64,000 nt of DNA, from NCBI GenBank assembly GCA_003134785.1, contig PLCN01000002.1, positions 62,219 through 126,218 of the forward strand, given 5' to 3'. The translations under genes and the position numbers were made by a program. Below are positions 57,221 to 63,881 of this stretch, one piece after another. The notes below the pieces were generated by a model. That model worked only from the letters and a program-made list of their open reading frames with translations. It did no database searches and had not been told where the DNA came from. Position 1 is the stretch's first letter; every line of letters starts with the position of its first letter. Source of the stretch: Spartobacteria bacterium (GTDB lineage Bacteria; Verrucomicrobiota; Verrucomicrobiia; Chthoniobacterales; UBA10450).

Positions 57221-57260
57221 CAAAAGATTGAACGGGTTGCCTTCGCGGATGCCCGTTCAA
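57221..57260 (-). terminator. Hairpin terminator after the MocR gene
   Basis: TTGAACGGG and CCCGTTCAA are a perfect 9-bp inverted repeat (57228-57236 and 57252-57260), followed on the minus strand by ATCTTTTG. The stem overlaps the stop codon. Confidence 0.8.
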
Positions 57261-58726
57261 ACGCGCTTCTCTTTGAGTGCTGAAGCGAGCTTGACCAGGC
57301 CTTCTCGAATTTGCGCCCGCGACCAGGCCGCGAAGCCAAAGATTAGCGCGGGATCTAGCGCCGCTTTGATGCAATAAAACGATAGCGATATGGGCCTGAT
57401 CCCGATCTTTTCTCGAGCACGCAAAATTCGCGGCAAATCTTCTTTGCGCCGCAGCCAGGCCACGAAGTGTAGCCCAGCTTCCGGAATCTGCAGATTGAAG
57501 TGGTCGCCGAGCGAATTATTAAATTGTTCAATGAAGAAATCTCTTCGATCAGAATATATTTTCCGCATCCGTTTGATGTGGCTCAGGAAAAACCCCTCCG
57601 TCAGGAATCGTGCCAGCGTCGCCTGATCAATCGCGGAAGAGTGTTGATCCATCACGGCCCGGACTTTGATCATCGAATCGACCAACGGCTCCGGGACCAC
57701 GAGATATCCCAAGCGCAAAGAAGGATAGAGAATTTTGCTCATTGTCCCCGCGTAGATCACTCGAGCGGAGTTATCGAGTCCCTGCAAACATGGCAGAGGT
57801 GGACCATTGAAACGGAATTCCGAGTTAAAATCGTCCTCGAAAATATAAGCGTTGCGCTTGCGAGCAAAATCAATCAGGGCAGTTCTTCGCTCGAGACTCA
57901 TCGTGACTCCAAGGGGAAATTGATGAGAAGGCGTCACGAAAATAATTTTGGGGGACGGCTGCTTGGACGAGGGAGCGATCACGATTCCTTCGCGGTCGAT
58001 CGGCCTCGGAACGAGCGTTGCGCCGGCCAAAACAAACGCCCTGCGCGCTTGTGAAAATCCAGGATCTTCGATCCATGCGGCTTCGCCCGGGTTTATCAAG
58101 ACCATCGCGCTGATTAGCATCGCCTGCTGCATTGCGGCCACGACTACGATCTGGTCGGGATGGCACCGTGCTCCCCGAAAATCGCACAAGTAGGCGGCAA
58201 TTGCCTTGCGCAGGTCGGCGTCGCCGCGATTCGACGCATAGCGCAATAAATGGGCTCCCTTTTTCGCGAGGACTTCCGCTCTGAGTCGTTCCCAAACTGC
58301 GATCGGAAATTCGTCGACCGCCGGGACGCCCGGTACGAGAGAGATGCTAGGCCCGCCGGTAATCCCAACATCAAATTCCTTTCCCCTGCGGTTATCGGGA
58401 ATTTTCCTAACGCGTTCGGAAATGCGCGGGGGGCGCTTGGCTTCCTGCCCGCCTTTCGGCTTATCGACGCGCAAGAGGGTTTCGGGCAACGGGTCTGCTG
58501 CAAACGTCCCCGACCCGAGCTTGGATCGCAGGTAGCCCTCAGCGTGAAGCTTCGAGAACGCGAGGTTTACGGTCAGTCTCGAGATTCCGAGATCCGTGGC
58601 CAGAGCTCGAGAGGACGGGAGCCGCGAGGACTCGTCGCTAAAGCTTCCCGATCCCAATTCATCACGGATTTGACGATAGAGTTGCTGGTAGAGCGGTTCG
58701 ACCGCAGTCCGGTCCAGTCGAATCAT
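57257..58726 (-). CDS. MocR-type regulator (GntR helix-turn-helix with aminotransferase domain)
   Basis: It has 489 residues from the ATG at 58726. The GntR winged-helix domain is in the first 75 residues (PLYQQLYRQIRDELGSGSF, LPSSRALATDLGISRLTVNL, AEGYLRSKLGSGTF). A fold-type I aminotransferase domain follows (about 115-480), with EDPGFSQARRAFVLAGA, FVTPSHQFPLGVTM, YIFEDDFNSEFRF and the PLP lysine in VIYAGTMSKILYPSLRLGY. MocR proteins use PLP as ligand and often control PLP or amino-acid metabolism genes. It is divergent by 185 bp from msrA, a possible target. Confidence 0.93.
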   Translation of the reverse strand: MIRLDRTAVEPLYQQLYRQIRDELGSGSFSDESSRLPSSRALATDLGISRLTVNLAFSKLHAEGYLRSKLGSGTFAADPLPETLLRVDKPKGGQEAKRPPRISERVRKIPDNRRGKEFDVGITGGPSISLVPGVPAVDEFPIAVWERLRAEVLAKKGAHLLRYASNRGDADLRKAIAAYLCDFRGARCHPDQIVVVAAMQQAMLISAMVLINPGEAAWIEDPGFSQARRAFVLAGATLVPRPIDREGIVIAPSSKQPSPKIIFVTPSHQFPLGVTMSLERRTALIDFARKRNAYIFEDDFNSEFRFNGPPLPCLQGLDNSARVIYAGTMSKILYPSLRLGYLVVPEPLVDSMIKVRAVMDQHSSAIDQATLARFLTEGFFLSHIKRMRKIYSDRRDFFIEQFNNSLGDHFNLQIPEAGLHFVAWLRRKEDLPRILRAREKIGIRPISLSFYCIKAALDPALIFGFAAWSRAQIREGLVKLASALKEKRV

Positions 58727-58911
58727 TTCGAAAGCTATGATCGAGCGCCGACGCCGCTTTTCGCTGTTCGATTTCCTCGTTCTGGTCCTCATAGCCGAAC
58801 TGGCATGCCCATTCCGTTCGAAGTGGACATTGCCGCCTTATCACAAAGCCGCAAGACTTGTTGACCATGTGCCAGTCATTGTCCAGACAGAATGGTCCGC
58901 CGGAGAAATCC

Positions 58912-59493
58912 ATGAGGGTACAACCCCATTCCCTTCCGCGTCTGTTGTTTTGTTGCGGTGCTTTCGCTCTCGGCCTGGCATTCTCTTGTCCGTCACCTGC
59001 CCAAAGCAATGAGACGAAATCTGACTCCGGCAAGGTAGCGTACTTTGCCGGCGGTTGTTTTTGGTGCACGCAAGAAATTTTCCGACAGGCGCCCGGGGTT
59101 ACCTCGGTTGTTTCCGGTTATATGTCCGGTGCGGAAACGGTCGAAGTCGCCTTCGATCCCGCCAAGACGAGCTACGAGAAATTACTGACGATATTTTGGC
59201 GGGCGCACGACCCCACCGAAATCGATCGCCAGGGCCCGGACACCGGGAGGCAATATCGCTCGGCCATCTTTTACATAAATGATCAACAACGTGAAATGGC
59301 TCAACGGTCCAAAAAACAGCTACAGGCGACCCACGCCTATCCGAAACCTATAGCTACCGGGATTACTCGCGCAGGTAGCTTCGATCGCGCCGACGAACAT
59401 CATCAGAATTTCTGTCGCAAGAACCCGAACAACTCTTACATCCAGCAAACGCTCGTGCCGAAGCTTAAGAAGCTTGGCCTAAAGCTCCCTTGA
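58912..59493 (+). CDS. msrA: Peptide methionine-S-sulfoxide reductase MsrA, exported
   Basis: It has 193 residues from the ATG at 58912. A signal peptide (RLLFCCGAFALGLAFSCPSP) precedes the MsrA domain: KVAYFAGGCFWCTQEIF, with the catalytic Cys49 in GCFWC, then VVSGYMSGAETVEVAFDP, FWRAHDPTEIDRQGPDTG and YRSAIFYIND. It reduces methionine S-sulfoxide in proteins. The export signal places it outside the cytoplasm, where ordinary thioredoxin cannot reach. Four bases separate it from the DUF1223 gene. Confidence 0.94.
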   Translation: MRVQPHSLPRLLFCCGAFALGLAFSCPSPAQSNETKSDSGKVAYFAGGCFWCTQEIFRQAPGVTSVVSGYMSGAETVEVAFDPAKTSYEKLLTIFWRAHDPTEIDRQGPDTGRQYRSAIFYINDQQREMAQRSKKQLQATHAYPKPIATGITRAGSFDRADEHHQNFCRKNPNNSYIQQTLVPKLKKLGLKLP

Positions 59494-59497
59494 AGTC

Positions 59498-60274
59498 ATG
59501 ATTAATGCGTCCAGCCGCGCCGGTCACGCCGAAGTTCGTTTGGCGCGCTGTCTCTTAATCGTAATCTTAATTAGCGGCGCTTACACAACGCGTACATTCG
59601 CCGGCGAAGAAGCGCTCTTTCAAAGCTCCGGCAAACAGACAAATCTTATAGAACTTTACACTGCGGAAGGATGTAGCAGTTGCCCGCCCGCCGAGGAGTG
59701 GCTTAGCAAACTTGGGGCGCAACCGGGCCTTTGGAAGGATTTCGTCCCCCTGGCGTTTCACGTCGATTACTGGGATGGGCGTGGCTGGAAAGATCGATTC
59801 GCGTCCGCGGCGTTCACCCAACGTCAGCGCGCTTACACGGCTGCCTGGAACAGCGGTTCCCCTTACACACCCGCCTTTGCTGTTAACGGCCGCGAATCGC
59901 GCTCGCCTGGATTGCCTGCTGCCACAAACGTCAACGCGGGCACGCTGAGAATCATGCGTGCGGGACGTAACCGATTTGTATTTGCCTATTCGCCGGCTTC
60001 CAAAACCGAATCGCAGTGGGATTTGCATGTCGCATTACTCGGCAGCGGAATCGTTTCAAAGGTTGCAGGCGGCGAAAACGCAGGGCGCCAGCTTCGACAC
60101 GACTTTGTGGTTCTGAAATACGATCGACTACGAATGACGGGCAGCGCGGGTCTCGTTCGGGCCGAGACCGCTTTAATCCGAGCAGAGGGAGCATCCCGCA
60201 GCGCGCTGGCAGCCTGGGTAACGCTCCACGACCAGATGATTCCAGTGCAAGCTACCGGCGGCTGGTTGCGGTGA
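59498..60274 (+). CDS. DUF1223 thioredoxin-like exported protein
   Basis: It has 258 residues with an N-terminal signal or anchor (CLLIVILISGAYTTRTFAG). The DUF1223 domain has LIELYTAEGCSSCPPAEEWL, with a CSSC pair at the thioredoxin-like active-site position, FVPLAFHVDYWDGRGWKDRF, RQRAYTAAWNSGSPYTPAFA. The remaining beta-rich C-terminus is FVFAYSPASKTESQWDLHVA. The family's role is not established. Lying between exported MsrA and MsrB, it is a good candidate for their electron donor or a redox partner. It is 22 bp before msrB. Confidence 0.85.
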   Translation: MINASSRAGHAEVRLARCLLIVILISGAYTTRTFAGEEALFQSSGKQTNLIELYTAEGCSSCPPAEEWLSKLGAQPGLWKDFVPLAFHVDYWDGRGWKDRFASAAFTQRQRAYTAAWNSGSPYTPAFAVNGRESRSPGLPAATNVNAGTLRIMRAGRNRFVFAYSPASKTESQWDLHVALLGSGIVSKVAGGENAGRQLRHDFVVLKYDRLRMTGSAGLVRAETALIRAEGASRSALAAWVTLHDQMIPVQATGGWLR

Positions 60275-60296
60275 GAAGAACACAAGGACGAGGAAT

Positions 60297-60821
60297 ATGC
60301 AGGGACGAATAGCCGCTTGTTTTTTACTTACTGGTCTTCTGCTCGTTTGCGGAATTACCGCCGCCAGGTCGGTTGATGCGGAAGTTCAACGGATTCGAAA
60401 ACAACTTAAGACGCTACCCATGAATCAGCCAGTGAAGCTCTCCGAAGAAGACTGGCGAAAGCTTCTGACGCCCGCCCAATTCCTTGTTCTGCGCCAGCGT
60501 GCGACGGAGCCTCCATTTACAAATGAGTATGCGAACGAGCATCAAAGCGGGATCTACCTTTGCGCCGCGTGCGGAAATGAACTCTTCGCTTCCAAGACAA
60601 AGTTCGAATCCGGAACCGGCTGGCCCAGCTTCTACGCGCCGCTCGCACCAGACAAGATAGCTCTAGCCGCGGATAGGACGACAGGCTTTTCGCGGCAAGA
60701 AGTTTTGTGCGCTCGATGCTGGTCACATCTTGGGCATGTCTTCAACGATGGTCCGCCCCCGACACATCTTCGTTACTGTTTGAATTCGGTTTCCCTGAAA
60801 TTGAAGAAGAGCAAGGAGTGA
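60297..60821 (+). CDS. msrB: Peptide methionine-R-sulfoxide reductase MsrB, exported
   Basis: It has 174 residues with a signal peptide (RIAACFLLTGLLLVCGITAA). The MsrB domain has CAACGNELF and CARCWSHLG (zinc Cys pairs), ESGTGWPSF, and the catalytic Cys in LRYCLNSVS. It reduces methionine R-sulfoxide in proteins outside the cytoplasm. It completes the msrA-DUF1223-msrB set. A truncated copy follows at 60963. Confidence 0.95.
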   Translation: MQGRIAACFLLTGLLLVCGITAARSVDAEVQRIRKQLKTLPMNQPVKLSEEDWRKLLTPAQFLVLRQRATEPPFTNEYANEHQSGIYLCAACGNELFASKTKFESGTGWPSFYAPLAPDKIALAADRTTGFSRQEVLCARCWSHLGHVFNDGPPPTHLRYCLNSVSLKLKKSKE

Positions 60822-60962: not shown

Positions 60963-61361
60963 ATGAATGGCCCATCGAGACTTCCTGGCTGGCGAAAGCT
61001 TCTGACGCCCGTCCAATTCCTTGTTCTGCGTCAGCGCTCGACGGAGCCTCCATCTACAAATGAGTATGCGAACACGCATCAAAGCGAGATCTACCTTTGT
61101 GCCGCGTGCGGAAATGAACCCTTCGCTTCCAAGACAAAGGTCGAATCCGGAACCGGCTGGCCCAGTTTCTACGCGCCGCTCGCACCAGACAAAATAGCTC
61201 TAGCCGAGGATAAGACGACGGGCTTTTCGCGGCAAGAGGTTCTGTGCGCTCGATGCCGGTCACATCTTGGACGCGTCTTCAATGATGGTCCTCCCCCGAC
61301 ACATCTTCGTTACTGTTTGAAGTCGGTTTCACCGAGATGGAAGAAGGGCAAGGAGCGATAG
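60963..61361 (+). CDS. Second MsrB copy, truncated N-terminus, no signal peptide
   Basis: It has 132 residues. From about codon 9 (GWRKLLTPVQFLVLRQRSTE) the sequence is a near copy of msrB, about 90% identical in DNA, starting at 60989 (first copy 60452, shift about 537). The zinc Cys pairs (CAACGNEPF, CARCRSHLG), GTGWPSF and the catalytic RYCLKSV are all kept, so it may be active. It has lost the signal peptide and first 50 residues, so it would stay in the cytoplasm. A ribosome site (AGAGGT) precedes the ATG. Confidence 0.88.
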   Translation: MNGPSRLPGWRKLLTPVQFLVLRQRSTEPPSTNEYANTHQSEIYLCAACGNEPFASKTKVESGTGWPSFYAPLAPDKIALAEDKTTGFSRQEVLCARCRSHLGRVFNDGPPPTHLRYCLKSVSPRWKKGKER

Positions 61362-62927: not shown

Positions 62928-63881
62928 TCAGGCGCTGACCTCATGGCTGGTTCGTTTGCTGAGAGCATCAGCCAGAACCAGCGCAGTTCCGCTGAAGGCT
63001 AAAATATCAACGAAATTGTTCAGCCCACCGTCTATGTCGGAAGGGTTAGCGACTATGATGGGGAAGTAAACAAATACTCCTAGAAGCAGAATCACAATCC
63101 CCAGATATATTGCTGCCAAGCGTACCTTTTTATTCAGGCCAATACACGCGCCGCAAGCAATAAGAGCCGAGCCCGTGAGATAGGCCCAGAAAAGACGCCC
63201 AGGAATCCATGCAGGTGTTATTGTTTCCATAGGAATACCGGGCGCGAGCGTGGGATGCAAAAAATGCTCCACGCCGAAGACTATCGCCGGTATCCCCACG
63301 AAAAAGCGGCAAAGAGTTACCAACCCTGGCGTGCCATCGGAAAGCGTTCTTTTCGACTGTCTTCCGGCCAACGCAAAAGCTCCACCGCTGAAGGCTAGAT
63401 CCCTCAGGCCGATGGTCCAAAACAAACGAGCGCCATGTGTGGCCACTATGTTAGGGATATGCATCAGGACCACGAAAAGTAGAAACATGCATCCCAAAAG
63501 TGTGGCCGCCAGCCGTGCATGTTTCTCCAGGATGGTGCTCAGCACCGCGGCAATAAGCGCAATGCCCACCAGATAGACCCAAAATGTGTGCAGCGGCATC
63601 CAGGACGGAACGATACTGGCAACGAACTTTGTATTGGTAAAATGCTGCGTGGCGAATACTGCCATCGGGATGGCAAAGAACAGCCGACCGAATGGCGAGG
63701 TCTTGTCGAGCCCGTGTTTTTGCGGTAGCTCGTCCTTAATAATCTTTGTTAGCCCGATTACAAAAAGAACGGCGCAGCTAAAATACGGCCAGAACACGTC
63801 CGCCCGGATTGGGAAGACAGCAAATGCTAAAGCAAGACGAGCGTGGTGGAGAAATTGGAAACTGCAATACAGCATATTCAT
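62928..63881 (-). CDS. DoxX-like membrane protein with internal duplication
   Basis: It has 317 residues, eight or nine hydrophobic helices. The two halves are related: FGRLFFAIPMAVFATQHFTN, WMPLHTFWVYLVGIALIAAV and LCRFFVGIPAIVFGVEHFLH, WIPGRLFWAYLTGSALIACG, each then followed by HARLAATLLG / KVRLAAIYLG. The pattern is that of DoxX/DUF4149-type quinone-related membrane proteins. It overlaps the preceding gene on this strand by 4 bp (ATGA). Confidence 0.75.
   Translation of the reverse strand: MNMLYCSFQFLHHARLALAFAVFPIRADVFWPYFSCAVLFVIGLTKIIKDELPQKHGLDKTSPFGRLFFAIPMAVFATQHFTNTKFVASIVPSWMPLHTFWVYLVGIALIAAVLSTILEKHARLAATLLGCMFLLFVVLMHIPNIVATHGARLFWTIGLRDLAFSGGAFALAGRQSKRTLSDGTPGLVTLCRFFVGIPAIVFGVEHFLHPTLAPGIPMETITPAWIPGRLFWAYLTGSALIACGACIGLNKKVRLAAIYLGIVILLLGVFVYFPIIVANPSDIDGGLNNFVDILAFSGTALVLADALSKRTSHEVSA

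What the first reader, a model, noticed from the sequence alone, without database searches (positions are those of the whole stretch)
58912..60821. Exported MsrA-DUF1223-MsrB: predicted periplasmic methionine repair with its own redox partner
MsrA and MsrB both have export signals and flank a DUF1223 protein with CSSC in a thioredoxin-like fold, with gaps of 4 and 22 bp. Periplasmic Msr enzymes need an electron source; known systems use MsrP/Q or DsbD-fed domains. DUF1223 as donor would be a new role.
Basis: partly seen in the sequence, partly recalled or inferred. Interest (0 to 1): 0.58.

Follow-up and report, generated by a model that had tools for sequence, protein, structure and literature searches.

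The report
Exported methionine-repair enzymes with thioredoxin-like partner
Two enzymes that repair oxidised methionine outside the cell membrane are encoded with a thioredoxin-like protein of unknown function (DUF1223), and related bacteria show the same pairing often enough to suggest that this protein supplies the electrons for the repair, although nobody has yet tested it here.

Summary
Observation confirmed: msrA, DUF1223 and msrB lie on the + strand with gaps of 4 and 22 bp, all with export-signal-like N termini.

DUF1223 stands directly beside Msr genes in 10 of 106 surveyed loci (Verrucomicrobiota, Gammaproteobacteria, Bdellovibrionota). In 75 DUF1223 genomes, 7 have MsrB within 1.5 kb against 0.10 expected (two of the seven were known beforehand). 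All linked copies fall in one DUF1223 subfamily, with about seven changes of the link on the tree; it is absent from a wider pseudomonadotal sample (0 of 80).

The best gammaproteobacterial loci read response regulator, histidine kinase, DUF1223, exported MsrAB; one has a separate exported Met-rich peptide, two have Met-rich repeats fused to MsrAB and a CcdA-like gene nearby. Fusobacterium has a similar cluster with eTrx instead of DUF1223.

DUF1223 has an invariant CxxC (100 sequences) and the two-domain fold of HBP35, a proven disulfide reductase. Most likely it recycles exported Msr. The functional link is well supported for the subfamily; electron transfer is inferred. New variant of a known kind.

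The parts
58912..59493 (+). msrA, export-signal-like N terminus; catalytic GCFWC with Cys49 and Cys52, further Cys168
59128..59133 (+). site in msrA (between Gly73 and Ala74) where a 17-residue loop of other MsrA is missing
   Evidence: alignment of 26 MsrA; only the window and L003 lack it
59498..60274 (+). DUF1223 gene: exported two-domain protein, thioredoxin fold plus beta-sandwich
59672..59683 (+). CSSC motif of DUF1223 (residues 59-62); both Cys invariant in 100 sequences
59867..59872 (+). Thr124-Pro125 of DUF1223, position of the thioredoxin-type cis-proline; invariant in 100 sequences
   Evidence: cis state inferred from the fold
60297..60821 (+). msrB, export-signal-like N terminus; two CxxC zinc-type pairs and catalytic RYC, no other Cys after the signal
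60963..61361 (+). decaying partial duplicate of msrB without signal; HLGH to HLGR and RYCLN to RYCLK

Best explanation
The operon is a methionine-sulfoxide repair set for the cell envelope. Exported MsrA and MsrB reduce the S and R sulfoxides of envelope proteins. Turnover leaves them oxidised: MsrA probably as a disulfide, MsrB, which has no spare cysteine, as a sulfenic acid or mixed disulfide. The DUF1223 protein, an exported thioredoxin-fold protein with CSSC, reduces them again and is itself reduced by a membrane thiol importer, here probably the unlinked DsbD-type protein. In Gammaproteobacteria the same DUF1223 subfamily sits in a two-component-controlled set with exported MsrAB, in three loci with a Met-rich peptide or domain that may act as a sacrificial oxidant sink. 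Shown: gene order, export-like N termini, conserved redox residues, predicted fold, recurrent linkage. Inferred: direction of electron flow, the chain DsbD to DUF1223 to Msr, the oxidant sensed.
For: Msr directly beside DUF1223 in 10 of 106 loci, 11 of 11 such genes at position +/-1, 10 of 11 on the same strand. SelR is the top Pfam family downstream, 7 of 104, and among the top upstream, 3 of 103. 7 of 75 DUF1223 genomes have MsrB within 1.5 kb, 0.10 expected; 5 of 73 without the two chosen genomes. All 11 linked rows lie in a 69-row clade and need 7 changes, at least 3 on starred branches. CxxC and Thr-Pro invariant. Fold like HBP35, Z 17.5, 203 residues, 3.2 A, which reduces insulin by its two Cys. 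CcdA-like gene near two linked loci. A TlpA/ResA-like gene or a fused thioredoxin domain stands beside or within other gammaproteobacterial MsrAB (L205, L210). DsbD-type importer in this genome. Published CcdA-Etrx-MsrAB sets have a thioredoxin in the corresponding place.
Against: No biochemistry. 96 of 106 loci have no Msr neighbour in the +/-5 gene survey, and 0 of 80 wider pseudomonadotal genomes within 1.5 kb. 10 of 14 gammaproteobacterial MsrAB fusions are not beside DUF1223. The MsrB beside DUF1223 in L088 and L149 has no signal-like N terminus. The window's MsrA lacks the loop with one catalytic Tyr and could be altered in activity. HBP35 also complements a dsbA mutant, so this fold can work as an oxidant. 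The window has no two-component system, CcdA or Met-rich gene beside the operon.
Confidence: 0.58

Rival explanations
1. DUF1223 belongs to the same envelope oxidative-stress response but does not feed Msr: it repairs oxidised cysteines or wrong disulfides in parallel, as DsbG/DsbC do, while Msr takes electrons from elsewhere.
For: HBP35, same fold, complements an E. coli dsbA mutant. L088 and L149 have an MsrB without signal beside an exported DUF1223. A review reads the Fusobacterium msrAB2 cluster in just this way: cytosolic MsrAB2 with an exported eTrx that serves other proteins.
Against: In the window, L003, L008, L009, L109, L114, L127 and L135 the Msr neighbour has a signal-like N terminus, and only Msr, not other cysteine-repair genes, is recurrent at position +/-1.
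Confidence: 0.25
2. DUF1223 handles copper or another metal, and Msr and Met-rich proteins are there because metal stress oxidises methionine.
For: In L088 a P-type ATPase with a heavy-metal-binding domain lies upstream of the TauE-DUF1223-MsrB set. Met-rich segments can bind Cu(I) (recalled). Weak Foldseek matches include the copper chaperone for superoxide dismutase.
Against: The ATPase is seen in one of the 10 linked loci. The CxxC is followed by PPA and sits with a conserved Thr-Pro as in thiol oxidoreductases.
Confidence: 0.08
3. The neighbourhood is incidental: DUF1223 has an unrelated job and lies beside msr genes by operon shuffling.
For: Most DUF1223 loci lack Msr; in two of the pseudomonadotal loci looked at, DUF1223 lies divergent from an aconitase-like gene instead (gene name recalled).
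Against: About seven changes of the link on the tree, both gene orders, separate and fused Msr, 7 genomes against 0.10 expected.
Confidence: 0.06

Closest known systems
Fusobacterium nucleatum msrAB2-ccdA-eTrx-modR-modS cluster (PMC12288474, passages read)
   Same: MsrAB, CcdA, an exported thioredoxin-fold protein and a two-component system in one cluster, as in L127 and L135.
   Different: eTrx instead of DUF1223; MsrAB2 there has no export signal; no Met-rich peptide mentioned in the passages read. The window itself has neither ccdA nor a two-component system beside the operon.
Streptococcus pneumoniae CcdA1-Etrx1-MsrAB2 operon (PMC3914529, passages read)
   Same: A dedicated extracytoplasmic thioredoxin-fold protein encoded with MsrAB and shown to reduce it.
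   Different: Etrx is a single-domain, DsbD-C-terminal-like lipoprotein; DUF1223 is another family with a second beta-sandwich domain. Foldseek lists Etrx2 only as a weak match (E 0.023).
Neisseria PilB, thioredoxin-MsrA-MsrB fusion fed by DsbD (PMC6210582, passages read)
   Same: Periplasmic MsrA and MsrB recycled by a thioredoxin-like unit that DsbD reduces.
   Different: In PilB the unit is fused and of TlpA/Redoxin kind (compare L210); here it is a separate DUF1223 protein.
Met-rich peptide plus MsrPQ under an ECF sigma factor (Brucella bcrXQP; Azospira MrpX) (PMC8315932, passages read)
   Same: Envelope Met-rich peptide with a sulfoxide reductase under stress control, as in L109, L127 and L135.
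   Different: MsrP is a molybdoenzyme fed by MsrQ from quinones; here thiol-dependent MsrAB, with a two-component system instead of a sigma factor.
DUF1223 structure 2axo (Agrobacterium Atu2684) and HBP35 of Porphyromonas gingivalis (5y1a)
   Same: Same two-domain fold, Z 20.6 and 17.5; HBP35 has thioredoxin activity.
   Different: HBP35 is a hemin-binding surface protein, not tied to Msr in the passages read; no function was seen for 2axo.

Membership tests
DUF1223 (PF06764) | profile score over the Pfam cut-off | tested here: met
   153.3 bits against 30.7
DUF1223 (PF06764) | CxxC and Thr-Pro of the thioredoxin fold | tested here: met
   C59, C62, T124, P125 invariant in 100 sequences; model pLDDT 91.1, 2axo Z 20.6
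MsrA (PF01625) | profile score and fold | tested here: met
   157.3 bits against 23.7; model matches MsrA structures, best Z 23.5
MsrA (PF01625) | catalytic Cys, Glu94 and Tyr134 counterparts | tested here: met
   C49, E75, Y115 invariant in 26 sequences; roles from PMC6210582, the mapping of numbers is mine
MsrA (PF01625) | loop with the Tyr82 counterpart | tested here: not met
   17 residues missing in the window and L003 only, of 26
MsrB (PF01641) | profile score, zinc-type CxxC pairs, HLGH and catalytic RYC | tested here: met
   159.4 bits against 24.9; motifs read in the translation
PilB-type system | thioredoxin domain fused to MsrA-MsrB | tested here: not met
   three separate genes
CcdA-Etrx-MsrAB system | ccdA and a TlpA/ResA-like Etrx in the Msr operon | tested here: not met
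   the middle gene is DUF1223; the genome's only DsbD_TM match is on another contig. Two relatives (L127, L135) do have a CcdA-like gene nearby
Msr-recycling thioredoxin (function) | reduces oxidised MsrA and MsrB | not testable with these tools
   needs purified proteins or mutants

The most novel reading that the evidence does not exclude
One DUF1223 subfamily is a dedicated envelope thioredoxin for exported MsrA/MsrB. In Gammaproteobacteria it forms, with an orthologous two-component system, a CcdA-like importer and a Met-rich sacrificial peptide (free in L109, fused to MsrAB in L127 and L135), a thiol-driven counterpart of the Met-rich-peptide/MsrPQ system that scavenges hypochlorous acid.
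Probability: 0.4. Interest if true: 0.7.

Novelty: new variant of a known kind. Interest (0 to 1): 0.55.

Why it matters
DUF1223 is common (113 of 398 pseudomonadotal genomes sampled) and has no assigned function that I saw: two papers of the held library name it, and the passages read in one give its fold only. If a subfamily recycles exported Msr it gains a testable role, and the question how envelope methionine repair is powered in bacteria without a PilB-type fusion or a CcdA-Etrx pair gets an answer. The three Met-rich loci also point to a thiol-based oxidant-scavenging cycle.

Tried and rejected
Chance neighbourhood was rejected by the counts. A DUF1223-MsrB fusion in G099 (531-aa open frame) was dropped: DUF1223 ends with a stop at 2127 of L053 and msrB starts at 2134. 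A family-wide partnership of DUF1223 with Msr was tested and not found: 0 of 80 pseudomonadotal genomes within 1.5 kb, one (G606) at 3.1 kb; the 80 were the first 80 of the 110 DUF1223 genomes new, because the tool takes 80 handles. In 20 of those neighbourhoods no MsrA, MsrP, MsrQ or CcdA was found, and MsrB only in L224, the G606 locus. MsrPQ lies near DUF1223 in 4 of 106 loci, in two of them (L138, L145) adjacent and convergent; L034 has only a distant molybdoenzyme; kept as a weak hint. A promoter scan found no sigma-70-like site, which says little for this phylum. The Met-rich peptide of L109 matches no NCBIfam or Pfam model, so its likeness to MrpX/BcrX rests on composition. A DoxX-like gene in the window (62928-63881, - strand) barely passes its cut-off, and the L003/L150 gene beside the operon matched nothing, so a DoxX link was dropped. 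Paper searches for an earlier DUF1223-Msr link; none seen in what was listed or read, and the library holds open-licence papers only. Rows dropped: 7 duplicate loci and L144 (no DUF1223 hit) before the count of 106; three loci with short DUF1223 matches, then four more partial ones, before the 100-row alignment. Adjacency within 1.5 kb was read by eye from the coordinates.

Full report
What is there. The window holds msrA (58912-59493), a DUF1223 gene (59498-60274) and msrB (60297-60821) on the + strand, 4 and 22 bp apart. Pfam names all three with clear scores, and NCBIfam names the two Msr. The N termini look like export signals by a hydrophobicity score, with the genome's cytosolic-looking MsrA and MsrB as controls. 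The 4.39 Mb genome (its class-mates and named relatives are Verrucomicrobiota) has two DUF1223, three MsrA and five MsrB genes. A Spartobacteria MAG (L003) has the same operon at about 86% protein identity.

Two features were missed. First, the MsrA lacks 17 residues that 24 of 26 aligned MsrA carry; L003 shares the loss. By my mapping the lost loop holds the counterpart of Tyr82; a review gives the proton donor as Tyr82 or Tyr134 with Glu94 as acid (PMC6210582, passages), and the counterparts of Glu94 and Tyr134 are kept. The gene is not decaying: dN/dS against L003 is 0.27, beside 0.22 for DUF1223 and 0.19 for msrB, and the model of the mature part is confident and matches MsrA structures. 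Second, a signal-less copy of msrB follows (60963-61361), 82.7% identical over 133 residues, with HLGH changed to HLGR and dN/dS 0.47: a duplicate that seems to be decaying.

Is the link real? I gathered DUF1223 loci by similarity to the window protein (34 named loci) and by family search: 26 of 236 genomes of the window's class and 50 of 229 of a class centred on one Msr-linked gammaproteobacterium; flanks came. Of 106 distinct loci with DUF1223, 10 have Msr genes within five genes; all 11 such genes stand directly beside DUF1223, 10 of them on the same strand. A Pfam tally of the next genes puts MsrB first downstream (7 of 104) and among the top upstream (3 of 103). In 75 DUF1223 genomes with 106 MsrB matches, 7 have one within 1.5 kb, expected 0.10; two of them (G000, G238) were chosen for it, which leaves 5 of 73. 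Relatives are not independent: on the tree the 11 linked rows need 7 changes, at least 3 on starred branches, and all lie in a 69-row clade, none among the other 31. A wider pseudomonadotal sample was negative: 0 of 80 within 1.5 kb, one at 3.1 kb. So the link belongs to a subfamily, not to DUF1223 at large.

What the linked loci look like. L109, L127 and L135 read response regulator, histidine kinase, DUF1223, exported MsrAB fusion; L114 has exported MsrAB, then DUF1223; L008 and L009 have MsrB with a signal-like start just before DUF1223 and the same regulator pair further upstream. These kinases are 52-66% identical to that of L109 over nearly their whole length, or in L204 over the part held; the pair also stands beside MsrAB without DUF1223 in L204, and the kinase in L201. 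L127 and L135 have a CcdA-like gene five genes upstream. L109 has an exported-looking 118-aa peptide, 18 Met in its 93 residues after the signal, just upstream of the regulator, and the MsrAB of L127 and L135 carry Met-rich repeats at their N termini (23 Met in 81 residues in L127). L017 has a convergent MsrB. L088 and L149 have TauE, DUF1223 and an MsrB without signal-like start, which does not fit a simple donor model.

Other donors in the same place. Of 14 MsrAB fusions found with the L109 protein (itself among them), 4 are beside DUF1223, and one (L205) is beside a TlpA/ResA-like gene; L210, from the same search, is a PilB-like thioredoxin-MsrA-MsrB fusion. The Fusobacterium cluster msrAB2-ccdA-eTrx-modR-modS (PMC12288474, passages) and the pneumococcal CcdA1-Etrx1-MsrAB2 operon (PMC3914529, passages) have a thioredoxin where these loci have DUF1223.

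The DUF1223 protein. Its two Cys and the Thr-Pro are invariant in 100 sequences, and an HVDYW motif nearly so. The model (pLDDT 91.1) is a thioredoxin domain plus a beta-sandwich, matching 2axo at Z 20.6 (195 residues, 2.7 A) and HBP35 at Z 17.5 (203 residues, 3.2 A), far above the next row at Z 6.8. HBP35 reduces insulin more actively than E. coli thioredoxin and loses this when both Cys are replaced, but an hbp35 plasmid also complements a dsbA mutant (PMC2907840, passages). That DUF1223 has a thioredoxin fold was known (PMC3091736, passages).

Mechanism. After its signal the window's MsrB has four zinc-type Cys and the catalytic one, so it needs an outside thiol; its MsrA has Cys49, Cys52 and Cys168. 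DUF1223 is the only thiol-reductase-like protein of the operon. The genome has one DsbD_TM match, unlinked, in a 719-aa protein with DsbD_N, DsbD_TM and a thioredoxin domain. The likely chain is DsbD to DUF1223 to MsrA and MsrB. Each arrow is inference.

Verdict. Observation confirmed; functional link well supported for one subfamily; donor role likely but untested; a new variant of a known kind.

Noticed in passing
L127 7659-8981 (+); L135 4544-5893 (-): Exported MsrAB fusions with Met-rich, M-x-K-D-like repeats between signal and MsrA domain (23 Met in 81 residues in L127): a repair enzyme that may carry its own oxidant sink.
   Followed up: partly
L109 4751-5107 (-): Small exported-looking Met-rich peptide (118 aa) directly upstream of response regulator, kinase, DUF1223 and MsrAB.
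   Followed up: partly
L209 2366-2920 (-): Exported-looking protein made of GMSGMG repeats on the opposite strand just after an MsrA with a lipoprotein-like start.
   Followed up: no
window 57257-58792 (-): GntR-aminotransferase (MocR-type, name recalled) regulator divergent from msrA, with Pfam GntR and Aminotran_1_2; also in L003. Possible regulator of the operon.
   Followed up: no
L087, L088, L149: Second DUF1223 copy of this group follows a TauE/SafE gene; MsrB follows it in G099 and G236 but not in the window's genome.
   Followed up: partly
L138 5355-7717; L145 6785-9274: MsrP and MsrQ genes convergent with and next to DUF1223 in two loci.
   Followed up: partly
L228, L235: DUF1223 of pseudomonadotal genomes divergent from an aconitase-like gene, with a TlpA-like gene beyond it in L235 (names partly recalled).
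   Followed up: no
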